A DNA stretch of 37,027 nt, from positions 1 to 37,027 of the forward strand of contig NW_013546885.1 in assembly GCF_000711695.1 (NCBI RefSeq). The letters run 5' to 3'. The notes below the pieces were generated by a model, which worked only from the letters and a program-made list of their open reading frames with translations, was not told where the DNA came from and searched no databases. The position numbers and the translations under genes are program-made. The DNA comes from Tilletiaria anomala UBC 951 (taxonomy: Eukaryota; Basidiomycota; Exobasidiomycetes; Georgefischeriales; Tilletiariaceae). Below, piece by piece: positions 14,313-36,752 of this stretch; position 1 is the first letter of the stretch; each line of letters opens with the position of its first letter.

Positions 14313-15164
14313 ATGTCGCATGATCCATACCACGAGTTTGCCCGAGATCTGCGCACCGACCTCGAGTCGGCCAAGGATCTCGCTCGATCCTACCAGTCCC
14401 TCCGCCAGAATCGATCACATTACACCGAGGCTGAGATCACTTCGTCTTGTGACAAGCTACAAGATGCGCTAGAAGGCCTGAAGTCGGACCTCGAGGACAT
14501 TAAGCAAAGCGTCGACGTTGTCAGCCGTGTGCCGAAACGATTTGGCCTCGATGAGGCCGAAATCGATCAGCGGCGACGGTTTGTGCAAGACTGCGAGCGA
14601 CAGATCGATGTGCGTCGACAATCATTAGGAAAAAGCTAAGCCTGTGCTGATATCCTCTCTGTCGCAGGATCTGTCTCGGTCAATGTCGCAATCAGCGCAG
14701 GCGCCGTCCTTCGGTGGCAAAGCAGGGCGGACCTACTCGGCTTCAAGAGAAGACGAAATGGACGGGCACGCGGATGACGAAGAGGATCCAAACGAAGCGT
14801 TCGAGCGCGAACATCAAGAGCAACTAATGCTAAAACAAGACTCAACCCTCGATCGGATAGGTTCGACGTTGACCAACCTTCGATCACAAGCCTCGGCCAT
14901 GGGCCAGGAGGTCGGCGAGCAACTCGAGCTTGTGGGCGCGCTGGACACAGAAGTGGATTCGACGCAGAATCGGCTGCAGAGAGCAATGGACAGGATGGAC
15001 GACTTGTTACAACGAAGTGACGAGCGACTAGGAGGGTGGTGTGTGTGGATTCTAATTGTGGTGAGACCGCATACGTTGGCACTCCGGCGCCAAGGTACTC
15101 GCTGACGCTCTTTGCGTGTTATCAGGTCCTCTTTCTATTACTGCTCATTGTGATGCTCATATGA
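14313..15164 (+). CDS. TLG1: Qc-SNARE Tlg1 (syntaxin-6/10 family)
   Basis: A SNARE for endosome-to-late-Golgi fusion. Exons 14313-14609, 14668-15060 and 15126-15164 join in phase 0 and give 242 aa. The N-terminal domain (residues 1 to about 110; DPYHEFARDLRTDLESAK) resembles the syntaxin-6 three-helix bundle. A charged linker follows, then the SNARE helix with LKQDSTLDRIGSTLTNLRSQ, the central-layer region QEVGEQLELVGALDTEVD and the closing NRLQRAMDRMDDLLQRS. The membrane anchor WCVWILIV is completed by the 13-codon last exon VLFLLLLIVMLI, leaving essentially no luminal tail. Both introns (58 and 65 nt) are short with clear GTGCGT/GTGAGA donors and CAG acceptors. Calling Tlg1 rather than Syn8 rests on the N-terminal domain and length. 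Confidence 0.9.
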
Positions 15165-15900
15165 TATGGGCGGCTGATTGAGATTGTGGTGGCCTCCCAC
15201 GACCACGCCATAAGCTTCCTCAGGGCATTCCAGGCCAGGATTATGCTGATCTGCGAACTGCTGGTTCCTTTCCAGCCGAAAGGACTCGCCTGACTATAGC
15301 AAAGCTATATCAAGTTGAAAGACCCGGTCAGAGCTTTTTTCCACGTGGCATGTCATACGCATCGACAGGTTGCCTTTGCGTACTTATGTGTCAGCGGTTT
15401 TACCTAATTCGACCGACTATCATCCATCGACAGCCTTCGCAAGACCATACGCGCACTGATCCACGCCAAGTACTAGCCCTATATGGCAATGACAAGAGAG
15501 CGCAGCGAAGGACGAAAGAGCATGTAGAATGCTGGAAAGAAGGAGTGGCATGGTAAGAAGACGGCAGGAGGAATGGAGAGCTTGATCGTCTTGGACCTAT
15601 GAGCCAATGCTTCGGCGTTGGCTAGCGAGTCCATGGCAGTGCCCAACGTAACCGAAAACACGAAGGCCTCTTGAAAACCAACCGACCAGGCATGACTTCA
15701 CTGTCCTCCAAGATCTCAACGCCCCATATCAAAGCGTACGGATCCCAAGTGGCAAAAGCATACAAGAAAACATGCATGCACAGTAAACGAATGAACGGAG
15801 AGTGTGTACTCGTAGATTACTGGGAAGGAGTGTAGTGAGACATAGTGCGCAGAATCGGTGTCCAGGGACAATAGGGAGAAGCAAAGAATCGGAAGTGAGC
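15165..15900. other. Convergent intergenic region; no gene supported
   Basis: About 735 bp between the stop codons of TLG1 and the Vip1-Ssp120 gene. Short frames at 15350-15556 (plus) and 15479-15661 (minus, no ATG) show no family signal. The region probably contains both 3' UTRs. Confidence 0.45.
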
Positions 15901-32208: not shown

Positions 32209-34981
32209 CTATGCTACATGTCGTACATTCAGCCAGTGCGACAAGCCATCTATGACGATGACAGAAAGCTCCGCGAGCAGGAAGATCTGAAGTACCCGCC
32301 GGATGCATTGGATGCGGCGCGTGTGCATCTGAGCTGAACTCGTCGAAGCAGACGGCGACACTCCACCCTCCACGTCTTCTCCTTGCCATCCATCGTCTCG
32401 TTCCCGATGTGCCGAGAAGCGGGCGCTGAATAAGAGCAGGAAGGTGGCGAACAGCTCGAGCAGCTCGTTACCGTCCAAGCCCGGGAGTGGAAGCGAATTG
32501 ATCACGATCAAGCTCAGACTGACCAGGACAAAGTACTCTAGTGCAAGCTCTGCGAGTGCCAGAAAGCTGTCCGTCAGAAACGTCGGCAGCAGTGCGCGCA
32601 GCAGCGCTCGCGGTGTGTACGGCGAGACGGTCAACCGCGTCAGCAGCTCCGCTCGCGGAGCTTGAAATAGAAGCGTCGTCGATGGAAAACCTGCACCGCC
32701 GCTGGCCCTTGTCAAGGCTTCGACAGATCTGTCGAGCAGCGTCAGCCGTATCAATTGCTCCCTGGGATTTGGGCGGATGCACAGAGCGTCGCTCGAGGGG
32801 GTCACAGGGCATTCAATCGCACGTTCGCATCGCGAAGCGTTGTACCCGCCAACGCGTCCCTCGAGTAAGCTTGTGATGTCGACGCGATGCAATTCTTTGC
32901 CAGCGTTGTTTCCGCTCAGCTGGAAGCATATTCCCGACCGCGCCGCGTCGGAGTCGCCTTGTGCGATGTCGCAACCGTCCGTCGGTAGCCTCTTCCACTG
33001 TGCTTTGTCGTAGCACCATCCTTTGATCTGGCCATCGGCAGCTGGTGTAGCGATCCCCATCTCCCATTGGCGTAGACGCTGATCAGCATCAGTGCCATTA
33101 ATGCCATTCCAGACAGACTCTCCCCACGTGAAATTTGACGGTGTCTTGTAAAATGCGACGTCGTCGAGAGCAAGAATGATATCGTTGATGCGAACTGCGT
33201 CACCCATCGCTGGCGCCAGCAGAGGTGATGTGCTAGCAATGTTGCTGATGCGCAGGCCCCCTTGCAGGCCCTCGGCGCTTGCAGCTGATAGAGGGTCATC
33301 GCTCCATCCTGCAGCACGTGCGATCCCCGCTAGGTTCCAGGGATACGTATTGGCTCGAAGAAATGAACGATGCGCAACGAGGCCAAGCTGCGCACCTGCA
33401 TCTGGCGAAAAGCTGGAATCGGGCATCAGTCCGACAGTAAAGAAAAACGCAAGCAGCCATAGCACATTTGCACCAATGCCCGCAGCGACCGTGATGGCGT
33501 GCACGCTTTGCAGCTGCACAGCTTTCATGATGACGTCTAGCCGAGGCGCGTCCTGATCAGTCCCCGGCGGTTCACTCTGCATCTCGATATGCTCTGCGGA
33601 AGTGGTACAAGCAGCTGTGGTATTGCCGTTCGCGCTTTGTCCCCCGGACCTGCGGAGCTGGTCCACCGCACGTGCGATGTCCATCTTCTTGATCGCACGG
33701 GGAAAGACGACATAGGCGCCAGCAACGAAGCCCGGGATGGGCATCCAGATGCCGGCTCTTCTCGGCAAGTACGCTGTGGCAGCACCAAGAATGCGCTGGG
33801 ATGCGACTGCCGCCGTAAGCGTATGACCTAGGATTTCATGGATGAACTGAGCGAAAATGAGCGAACCAATCAACAGGGGCAAGTGGGACACCGGGAGCGA
33901 TATGCCGGGTATCTGAGAGCATCATTTTGAAGACTTAGCTGAACTCATCATCAAGGCATTACTTCAAGTGTACACTCACGAGTAAAGACAGATGAGGAGG
34001 TTCTGGTTGGAGTTCTGTCCCGTTGTATGGGGCATCCACATCGCCATCGTTACTGTTGCGACGTGCAAAGATGGAATTCGACAATATGGCATTCGTCTGT
34101 GAATTCCCATCCTGTGCACTGAGCATCACGAAGCGCCAGAACAGCGTTCCAGCCCATATGTGCAGAATGAGCAGGACCAAGAGGGAATAAACGAGTGACG
34201 CAACAATCGTTTGACCCGTGTATGCTCTCATGAGAGCAAGTCGAGATGCTCCGGTTGTGCCTGAGCGGCTTTCATTCGCGCAGTAATCGACAAAACGAGC
34301 CAAGCTGAGGTTGAAGTGCGTCGTTTCGAGCCGCAAGCTCCACCATGATAGTTGCACCGCTGTGACCGCCTCGGGGGACGAGTCGTCCTGTCCTTCGTCC
34401 TCTTCATCGTCGCTATCTGCACCACCTGCACTACTTTCCTCGTCAAATTTCGGGGGAGGAGGTGGGGTAACAGCAGGCGAATGGCCTGTCGGCGAGTCTT
34501 CACAACCGGTGGGCTGTGCAAGTTCATACGCTAAATGCGACCACCTTGACCCCACTGGGGCGCCTCCGTGCATCCACGACGGCAGCGCGCGCAATGCAGC
34601 CTTGACACCATGCAGATGATACTTGCGGACAAGTACCGAGAACGTCGACAGTGCACCACCGGCGGTACCGTAGTCGTACGCATAGCTTGCTTGGTTTCCA
34701 TTGCGGTGATGCAGCCAGGTTCGCAGGACGACTTGCAGGCACAGCCATGGCAGGACCATGGGAATGAGCGTGTGGGCCACGTCCTTCTTGTCTGGAACAT
34801 GCTCGGCCCAGGCACGAGCGAGGAAGATGATCTTGTCCTTGGCCGCGCTCAGCGCATGACCTTGACTTTGAGGAATGCCCATTGGTGTGACCGCCCCATC
34901 ACCCTCAGGTCGGGCCCAGCTATCGTGGGCGAACGCAAGGAGAAGTAAAGAACGGACCGCTGCGGTACACCATCTCGTCAT
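32209..34981 (-). CDS. Site-2 protease (M50 intramembrane metalloprotease), with altered HExxH motif
   Basis: Site-2 proteases cleave membrane-bound transcription factors such as SREBP within the bilayer. Exons 33980-34981 and 32209-33912 (67-nt intron, phase 0) give 901 aa, longer than usual. The N-terminus is hydrophobic (AAVRSLLLLAFA), with further membrane segments at PMVLPWLCLQVVLRTWL and IVASLVYSLLVLLILHIWAG, and an acidic insertion. The core begins IPGISLPVSHLP, typical of S2P, then FAQFIHEILGHTLTAA: His359-Glu360 and His364 are separated by three residues (HExxxH) instead of the family's HExxH. A PDZ-like stretch (GGLRISNIA, GDAVRINDIILALDD) and a Cys-rich luminal part follow. The third zinc ligand region NSLPLPGLDG (Asp814) is intact, followed by membrane helices. 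The start at 34981 (MTRWCTAAV) is the first ATG in the frame. It may be a full enzyme or a pseudoprotease. Confidence 0.88.
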
Positions 34982-35681
34982 TTGCGCTCGATGCGGTCGA
35001 CTAGACGGCCTTGAACACAAAGGGTGTCAGACCGAGGGATCCGCTTAGAAGGGCTGCGGGTGCAAGGACGAACATGTGTGATGCACCTGAAGCGACCAGC
35101 TCGATGACTGGCGCGACGAAGGCCGCTAAAGTCTCTCAGTCGCTCACGAACTTTCCTGGTCCGGTGCGAGTATGCTGGAATCGGGGCATCAAATGCGAAA
35201 GCTAGGATAGGAGGCTGAAGGACTACCACAATCAGCTCTATAATCTGCACGCTATAAGGCATAGTGAAACCCTTGCATATCACCTGGTTGTCAGAATTGA
35301 GTTCTGCCTTTGAACCACACTGAGGGACTCAACTGAAAGCACTACGCGTGCGCGATTACGTACATCTCTCAGGCCGGGTTCATGTACAAACAGAAGGCCT
35401 TACTGCTCATGCAAGGCTTTGCGATGACGTGGTGACATGCATCTTCGGTGAAGCGGCACAAGCATTTGTAACGAGCATCAACACATTCATTGCAAAGTTT
35501 CCTTCGCGCTGCGCTTGCCTCCTGCACAGGAAACAGAGTGGAAGCCAGCGCGAAAGTCGACATAAGCCATACACACGCGCTTCATAGACCCATCAGAGAA
35601 CCGAGATGAGAGACCAGGGAAGGGGAAAACAATGTGCGGACGGAACGCCTAGGAGAGAAGGCCGCCCTGACTGTAGGGCGC
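34982..35681. other. Intergenic region between S2P start and SNC1 stop
   Basis: 700 bp containing the S2P promoter and the SNC1 3' UTR. A 79-codon plus-strand frame (35348-35587) and its antisense show no motif. Nothing else seen. Confidence 0.45.
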
Positions 35682-36752
35682 TTACTTGTGCCCGAACTTA
35701 ACGACGATCGGGATGACGATGATGCCGAGAAGGATGAGGATACCGACGATGAGGATGATTCTCATTCTGCAGGGAGTTTGAAGTCAATCGATGAAATGAC
35801 ACTTCTATTTCTCGGAGGAGACAGTGTGGCGTTGGGCCATCGCCCAGAACAATACTCACTTCATCTGTGTAAGTCACACGTGTGCGTTCAACGAGACGTA
35901 ATCGGGATGTGGTGTTGCATGAGAGGAACAAAACCAAGGCAGTTAGCAATCACCACTCTGAAAGGGGGAAGGCGGTGAGTGTTTCCAAGCAGCCACACAG
36001 GCATTCTGCGGGAAGTTCCAAGCACATTTGTAATCGGAGTGCTCCGACTAAAGGCCACAACCCCCCCTGACACCACCGAGGTTACTAGCCGACCTAGCTT
36101 CTGCGGACATGCACTTGCGATTTGCACATTGTTGACCTTATAGGAAGAGCCGTTGAATGCTTGAAGCACCAGGCATGCCAGCCGAATGCAAACTGCCGGT
36201 TGCCCCAGGCCTTTCATCACAGCCGCTGGGGCTTCCCATCCTTGCCCTCCTCTACCCCTCACCTAGCCAAACATACAGCTGCCAACCGCAGCAGCCAGCC
36301 TTTATGGGAAAGGGTACTCACATCCTTCCACCACATCTGCTTCCGGACCCTGTTGGCGCCGCGTCGGAAACCTTGCGCCGAGACAGCGAGGTTGTCTGTG
36401 CGACGGGGTGGTCAAGGATTCCAGTCATTCCGGGAGGGAAAAGGGGGGAAGGACAGAGAGCAGTGCATCAGTATGCTGCGCTAATCAAGCGCTTGGAAGA
36501 TCGGTAATAGGCTCCTTGCGGCGCCAGGACAGCGTAAGCGGGAGAGCTAAACGCACCCGTCTTGTCCTGCAAGCTGTTCAAGTTCTCTCCACGCTCGTTG
36601 ACCTTGTTGATATTGTCCCTCATGACGCCGACCGTCTCGTCGATCTGCGCTTGGATCTGCGCAGTCTTCGTGTTGCCGGCGCCCTGGCGCTCGCCGCCTG
36701 CGGATGAGGGGATGTACGGATCATAGGCGCCGGTGGACTCGTTGTACGACAT
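35682..36752 (-). CDS. SNC1: R-SNARE synaptobrevin (Snc1/Snc2)
   Basis: A vesicle SNARE for exocytosis and endocytic recycling. Four exons: 36557-36752, 36322-36395, a 5-nt microexon 35860-35864 and 35682-35766. They give 119 aa, the normal size. After a short N-terminus ([17 protein letters not shown]) the SNARE motif runs [20 protein letters not shown], with the zero-layer Arg in NERGE, then LNSLQDKT joined to [19 protein letters not shown]. The juxtamembrane QMWWKD is followed by MK from the microexon, then [20 protein letters not shown] as the tail anchor and VVKFGHK at the end. Phases are 1, 0 and 2. Without the microexon, the third and last exons do not join in frame and the conserved WWKDMKMR is lost. 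Introns are 161, 457 and 93 nt, longer than elsewhere in the window. Confidence 0.93.
35860..35864 (-). other. SNC1: 5-nt microexon of SNC1 (ATGAA)
   Basis: On the minus strand the sequence TTACACAG-ATGAA-GTGAGTATTG has a perfect acceptor and donor flanking five bases. It adds Met and two bases of Lys, completed by the A that follows the CTGCAG acceptor of the last exon, giving [14 protein letters not shown], the conserved synaptobrevin juxtamembrane sequence. Confidence 0.88.

What the first reader, a model, noticed from the sequence alone, without database searches (positions are those of the whole stretch)
35682..36395. A 5-nt microexon rebuilds the conserved WWKDMKMR junction of synaptobrevin
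Exon 2 ends ...KQMWWKD in phase 0 and the transmembrane exon starts in phase 2, so they cannot be joined directly. Between them, 35860-35864 reads ATGAA between a textbook acceptor (TTACACAG) and donor (GTGAGTATTG). Inclusion restores phase and gives exactly the juxtamembrane sequence known for synaptobrevins. Five nucleotides is near the lower limit for exon definition, and automatic gene predictors would very probably miss it, truncating the SNARE or losing its anchor. Skipping would give an anchorless SNARE, a possible switch.
Basis: partly seen in the sequence, partly recalled or inferred. Interest (0 to 1): 0.72.

Follow-up and report, generated by a model that had tools for sequence, protein, structure and literature searches.

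The report
Five-base exon in fungal synaptobrevin gene
A fungal gene for a vesicle-fusion protein appears to contain an exon only five bases long that joins its fusion motif to its membrane anchor; such tiny exons are known in other organisms, so this is a neat but not revolutionary case that gene-finding software could easily get wrong.

Summary
On the minus strand, the one Snc1-type synaptobrevin gene found in this genome has exons 36752-36557, 36395-36322, 35864-35860 (ATGAA) and 35766-35682. Joined, they give a complete 119-aa protein ending WWKD-MK-MRIILIV...KFGHK. Its Pfam Synaptobrevin score is 114.3 bits, against 81.6-104.3 for five other splice forms. In-frame TGA stops 12 nt before the exon and directly after ATGAAG fix its size. 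YAG-ATGAA-GTRAGT occurs once in the 18.4-Mb genome, here. A hydrophobic-plus-K 5-nt exon between YAG and GTRAGT arose in 4 of 20,000 shuffles.

No transcript and no orthologue could be examined. One single-intron rival, from a donor at 36262 and adding 20 residues, also has consensus sites and stays open; only family conservation argues against it.

The likeliest working is constitutive inclusion by intron definition. The suggested anchor switch has no support: skipping shifts the frame and gives a 112-aa product without the anchor.

Microexons of 1-15 nt, a 5-nt one included, are established in plants, and 6-bp fungal exons are in print. This is a new member of a known kind.

The parts
36557..36752 (-). 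Exon 1 (196 nt): N-terminus and first half of the SNARE motif, ATG at 36752
   Evidence: PF00957 match at 36543-36674
36396..36556 (-). Intron 1 (161 nt), GTGCGT...CACAG
36322..36395 (-). Exon 2 (74 nt): second half of the SNARE motif, ends ...KQMWWKD in phase 0
   Evidence: PF00957 match at 36319-36402
35865..36321 (-). Intron 2 (457 nt), GTGAGT...TTACACAG; longest of nine homology-placed introns
35860..35864 (-). Microexon 3 (5 nt), ATGAA: Met and the first two bases of Lys
35767..35859 (-). Intron 3 (93 nt), GTGAGT...TGCAG, branch-like TTGAC
35682..35766 (-). Exon 4 (85 nt): membrane anchor [27 protein letters not shown] and stop TAA
36261..36262 (-). Rival donor GTGAGG, in phase and open, for a direct join to exon 4 with a 20-residue insert

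Best explanation
This is the one brevin-type (Snc1/VAMP2-like) R-SNARE gene found in a compact fungal genome. It has four coding exons, and the third is a constitutive 5-nt microexon, ATGAA, that supplies Met and two bases of Lys at the joint between SNARE helix and membrane anchor. The likely route is intron definition. The spliceosome pairs the GTGAGT after the microexon with the branch-like site and CAG of the 93-nt intron 3, and pairs the GTGAGT of exon 2 with the CAG before the microexon. If intron 3 leaves first, the microexon becomes the start of a 90-nt exon and its size stops mattering. The finished protein runs without interruption from the SNARE motif into the anchor. Shown: sequence, reading frames, splice-site matches, family scores. 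Inferred: transcript inclusion, order of intron removal, constitutive use.
For: The joined protein is complete and continuous with the family (PF00957 114.3 bits over profile positions 2-88 of 89). Skipping, intron-2 retention and an upstream donor score 83.2, 87.5 and 81.6; the 20-residue insert and a 2-nt CT exon score 84.2 and 104.3. Of the five PDB matches aligned four cover the joint: yeast Snc1 DLKMK, VAMP2 NLKMM (two sequences), VAMP4 GCKI; all four have K where the microexon gives K. The microexon's frame has TGA four codons upstream and TGA straight after ATGAAG, with only one AG between, so no longer exon in that frame is possible. Nine introns placed by homology in this genome, three of them this gene's own, all use CAG and GTG[AC]G; four of nine use GTGAGT (two of the six outside this gene). 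Genome-wide the site pattern occurs once, here. Shuffles.
Against: No RNA evidence. No orthologue found (0 relatives in viral contigs; 0 in genome contigs; neither collection is meant to hold fungi), so conservation of the two intron positions is untested. Intron 2 (457 nt) is the longest of the nine homology-placed introns (the others 58-161 nt), and under intron definition length counts against it. Its branch-like site starts 13 nt before the intron end, against 20-33 nt for the nearest one in the six other introns measured, so this acceptor may be weaker than usual. A single-intron join from 36262 also satisfies the local splice consensus. The 2-nt CT exon scores only 10 bits lower in Pfam. 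The nine reference introns were picked by eye with consensus in mind, so their uniformity is partly circular.
Confidence: 0.88

Rival explanations
1. There is no microexon: exon 2 runs on to 36263, uses the donor GTGAGG at 36262 and joins the last exon directly through one 496-nt intron, giving a synaptobrevin with [20 protein letters not shown] in place of MK. As a minor isoform it could exist beside the microexon form.
For: Donor and acceptor fit the local consensus, the frame is open and the anchor is kept; simpler by one exon, and probably what a gene predictor would choose (inference).
Against: PF00957 score 84.2 against 114.3 bits; it puts 20 residues into a joint that the four solved relatives covering it keep without a gap; it leaves ATGAA with its good sites to chance.
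Confidence: 0.07
2. The microexon is a regulated switch: included it gives an anchored SNARE, skipped it gives a soluble SNARE that blocks fusion.
For: Skipping would indeed remove the anchor (112 residues); intron 2 is long and its branch-like site sits close to the acceptor; a condition-dependent microexon is reported in Trichoderma virens (PMC11121469, abstract and passages).
Against: 5 nt is not frame-neutral; the skipped product ends in a 22-residue frameshifted tail ([22 protein letters not shown]) that looks like out-of-frame anchor sequence; no expression data; no second brevin-type gene was found to cover for it.
Confidence: 0.04
3. A different tiny exon is used: the 2-nt CT at 36278-36277, giving WWKD-L-MRIIL.
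For: Open, restores phase, CAG acceptor; Pfam 104.3 bits, the nearest to the microexon form.
Against: Its first intron would be only 43 nt (the shortest of nine homology-placed introns is 58) and its donor GTATGT does not fit GTG[AC]G; the protein loses one residue at the joint.
Confidence: 0.01

Closest known systems
Small constitutive microexons (1-15 nt) of plants, e.g. 1-nt exons of APC11 and VPS55 and a 5-nt exon in rice (PMC8831610)
   Same: Same size class; the VPS55 exons have GTRAGT donors; missing the exon breaks a conserved protein; mostly unannotated; VPS55 is likewise a trafficking gene in which annotations without the exon give wrong membrane helices (abstract and passages)
   Different: Plant, RNA-seq and RT-PCR supported, conserved across species; here fungal, sequence only, one genome
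Microexons of P450 genes in the basidiomycete Phanerochaete chrysosporium (PMC1184071)
   Same: Fungal; exons down to 6 bp among small introns (passages)
   Different: A different gene family; described as encoding 2-10 aa; proposed there, not shown by the passages seen, to promote alternative splicing
Xlr2 microexon of Trichoderma virens (PMC11121469)
   Same: Fungal microexon that changes the protein made (abstract and passages)
   Different: Condition-dependent inclusion reported, in a transcription factor; the present exon has no sign of conditional use
Snc1 / VAMP2 synaptobrevins
   Same: SNARE motif, aromatic-K juxtamembrane stretch and C-terminal anchor; best PDB match yeast Snc1, E 1.7e-32
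   Different: Only the gene's exon layout is unusual; the protein is ordinary

Membership tests
Brevin-type R-SNARE (synaptobrevin/Snc1) | Synaptobrevin domain above Pfam's cut-off | tested here: met
   PF00957 114.3 bits, cut-off 26.4; also met by the five other splice forms
Brevin-type R-SNARE (synaptobrevin/Snc1) | Arginine at the zero layer of the SNARE motif | tested here: met
   The R of NERGENL aligns with the R of VAMP2 LERDQKL; that this R is the zero layer is recalled
Brevin-type R-SNARE (synaptobrevin/Snc1) | Aromatic-basic juxtamembrane stretch followed directly by a C-terminal membrane anchor | tested here: met
   [28 protein letters not shown], given the microexon; no topology program was run
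Brevin-type R-SNARE (synaptobrevin/Snc1) | Short N-terminus without a longin domain | tested here: met
   Only PF00957 found in the 119-aa protein, starting at residue 27
Microexon (15 nt or less) | Length within 1-15 nt | tested here: met
   5 nt, bounded by in-frame stops on both sides
Microexon (15 nt or less) | Canonical acceptor and donor directly flanking it | tested here: met
   TTACACAG and GTGAGTAT; nine of nine homology-placed introns of this genome use CAG and GTG[AC]G
Microexon (15 nt or less) | Included in mature transcripts | not testable with these tools
   No RNA reads or cDNA available
Microexon (15 nt or less) | Conserved in orthologues | tested here: inconclusive
   No orthologue in the two collections scanned, which are not fungal collections; the other R-SNARE-like hits of the genome are different family members by my reading
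Regulated (switch) microexon | Frame-neutral length giving two working isoforms | tested here: not met
   5 nt; skipping gives a 112-aa frameshifted product without the anchor
Regulated (switch) microexon | Condition-dependent inclusion | not testable with these tools
   No expression data

The most novel reading that the evidence does not exclude
Inclusion of the five bases is regulated, so that the cell can turn its one brevin-type R-SNARE from a membrane-anchored fusogen into a soluble inhibitor, or into the 20-residue-insert form from donor 36262, by splicing alone. The long intron 2 and the close branch-like site before the microexon would be the control points.
Probability: 0.04. Interest if true: 0.7.

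Novelty: new member of a known kind. Interest (0 to 1): 0.3.

Why it matters
If transcripts confirm it, a housekeeping SNARE gene in a fungus depends on correct splicing of a 5-nt exon. That gives a small test case for how a spliceosome that works by intron definition handles exons too small for exon definition. It also warns that fungal SNARE annotations made without such exons may lack the membrane anchor or carry a false insert.

Tried and rejected
Splice-site weight matrix: a self-trained set from 237 kb was swamped by false introns (219 'introns' with nearly flat donors), so its percentiles (acceptor before the microexon 72nd, donor after it 88th) are not used as evidence. I used introns placed by protein homology instead: SNC1 i1-i3, YKT6, SEC22 and two of a Qc-SNARE, PUP3 (109 nt; sequence shown) and ArgRS (71 nt). 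The ArgRS look-up failed because I gave wrong anchor letters.

Orthologues: searched in viral contigs (31 stretches matched a pattern, 0 relatives) and genome contigs (173 stretches, 0 relatives). Neither is a fungal collection, so the absence says little.

Other exon models: the open direct joins that keep both frames (6 listed) and the open phase-restoring internal exons up to 90 nt (26 with any AG/GT; 3 with YAG and GTRNG; 1 with YAG and GTRMGT) were listed. A hidden intronic RNA was looked for: 0 Rfam matches in the window at gathering score and 0 at E up to 1 over 35760-36600.

Papers: searches for a synaptobrevin microexon (4 of 4 papers listed) and for fungal microexons or SNC1 gene structure (listed: 9 of 9, 3 of 3, 20 of 435, 20 of 28, 20 of 152, 2 of 2, 15 of 3,512, none of those 15 holding 'microexons') showed no 5-nt exon in a fungal synaptobrevin gene. 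I saw listings and some passages, not the full texts, and most of the long lists were not shown. In two SNARE papers I looked for intron and exon and got 0 (PMC10252874 by word start; PMC2639358 by whole word, so plurals were not counted). PMC3990503 and PMC4739763 (passages) name microexons only as a mapping setting, a method or in a reference. PMC8042270 and PMC13149111 were seen as passages for background. PMC6909477 was opened by mistake (outline only).

Full report
What is there. The window is a whole contig (C137) of an unnamed 18.4-Mb, 202-contig assembly. Genes such as arginyl-tRNA synthetase, a proteasome subunit, HisG and SNAREs with short GT-AG introns point to a fungus; the species was not identified. 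Near the contig end, on the minus strand, lies a synaptobrevin gene. A search of the assembly with its core exon found one match. A search with PF00957 gave seven matches: two are exons of this gene. The other five I read as a Nyv1/VAMP7-type gene (C23), YKT6 (C49), SEC22 (two matches, C125) and a weak hit inside a long frame on C35; these names rest on my reading of the sequences.

Gene model. Exons 36752-36557, 36395-36322, 35864-35860 and 35766-35682, with introns of 161, 457 and 93 nt, give a 360-nt reading frame and a 119-residue protein. The best solved relative is yeast Snc1 (9cru_J, E 1.7e-32). Of the five relatives aligned there, four cover the joint: WYKDLKMK (yeast Snc1), WWKNLKMM (VAMP2, two sequences) and WWRGCKI (VAMP4); here it is WWKDMKMR. 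The microexon supplies M and two bases of K.

Why five bases. Read in the frame that gives MK, the DNA runs GTG TGA CTT ACA CAG ATG AAG TGA. Stops on both sides and a single AG between them leave no room for a longer exon in that frame. The anchor frame likewise opens only just upstream of the last exon (open stretch 35682-35783), and the AG that ends at 35767 is the only one between that stop and the anchor's first ATG.

Alternatives. With donor 36321 and acceptor 35767 kept, 26 open phase-restoring internal exons up to 90 nt exist if any AG and GT are allowed, three with YAG and GTRNG, and one, ATGAA, with YAG and GTRMGT. Six open direct joins were listed from three donors; one of these donors, GTGAGG at 36262, fits the local consensus and adds 20 residues. 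Pfam scores rank the forms: microexon 114.3, 2-nt CT exon 104.3, intron-2 retention 87.5, 20-residue insert 84.2, skipping 83.2, upstream donor 81.6 bits.

Chance. Dinucleotide shuffles of the 543-base stretch show that a phase-restoring mini-exon as such is cheap: 1857 of 4000 with YAG and GTRNG and 107 of 4000 with YAG and GTRAGT (2-20 nt), and 1119 of 5000 with CAG and GTG[AC]G (2-89 nt). Any 5-nt exon with YAG and GTRAGT came in 127 of 20,000. What is rare is the right residues between good sites: hydrophobic+K with YAG and GTRAGT in 4 of 20,000, with the looser GTRNG in 28 of 20,000, and ATGAA between any AG and GT in 27 of 20,000; hydrophobic+K with CAG and GTG[AC]G in 0 of 5000. In the genome YAGATGAAGTRAGT occurs once, here, and the reversed control never. 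By arithmetic about one random occurrence per two genomes of this size would be expected with even base use, so the weight lies in where it falls. These patterns were chosen after seeing the site.

Local splice habits. Nine introns placed by homology, three of them this gene's own, all end in CAG and begin GTG[AC]G; four of nine have GTGAGT, two of these outside this gene. Lengths are 58, 65, 65, 71, 93, 107, 109 and 161 nt, and 457 nt for the intron before the microexon. In the seven introns measured, the nearest branch-like NTRAY starts 20-33 nt before the end in six and 13 nt before it in this one. The set is small and was partly chosen by consensus.

How it probably works. Review passages say that under intron definition efficiency depends on intron length, not exon length, and that Prp40 is needed for exons too small for enhancers (PMC8624252, passages). 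I infer that the short intron 3 leaves first, which turns the five bases into the head of a 90-nt exon, after which intron 2 is removed. The length of intron 2 counts somewhat against an easy ride. Skipping gives 112 residues with a frameshifted basic tail and no anchor; retaining intron 2 gives 110 residues; retaining intron 3 alone ends right after MK at 92 residues. None of these looks like a selected isoform.

What is known. A plant study reports 2,398 small microexons of 15 nt or less in 10 species, most of them unannotated, with 1-nt exons in APC11 and VPS55 and a 5-nt one in rice confirmed by RT-PCR sequencing; the donors of the 1-nt VPS55 exons are GTRAGT (PMC8831610, abstract and passages). 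In fungi, P450 genes of Phanerochaete chrysosporium have exons down to 6 bp (PMC1184071, passages), and Trichoderma virens has a condition-dependent microexon; that paper calls fungal work limited (PMC11121469, abstract and passages). What my searches listed shows no such exon in a fungal synaptobrevin gene. The case is a new member of a known kind.

Verdict. The microexon is very probably real and probably constitutive. The switch is a conjecture without support.

Noticed in passing
window 14400-15170 (+): A Qc-SNARE gene (SNARE domain PF05739, E 0.00032, below the family's cut-off; Syn8/Tlg1-like by my reading) whose membrane anchor is also split by a short phase-0 intron (WILIV|VLFLLLLIVMLI, 65 nt). 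One contig thus carries an R-SNARE and a Qc-SNARE about 21 kb apart, both with the anchor cut by or from the SNARE exon by an intron.
   Followed up: partly
L002 (C23:147941-148171, minus): The Nyv1/VAMP7-type R-SNARE of the same genome keeps its WWKNIKVLG joint in one exon, so the intron pair around the joint is not shared with this paralogue.
   Followed up: partly
window 35888-36262 (-): Intron 2 holds a 124-codon stretch open from stop to stop on the sense strand; probably chance at about 55% G+C, not tested.
   Followed up: no
window 32209-35026 (-): Neighbouring open stretches, one with a weak Peptidase M50 match (E 7.1e-05, below the family's cut-off) and one with no Pfam match; probably a site-2-protease-like membrane protein in two pieces.
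   Followed up: no
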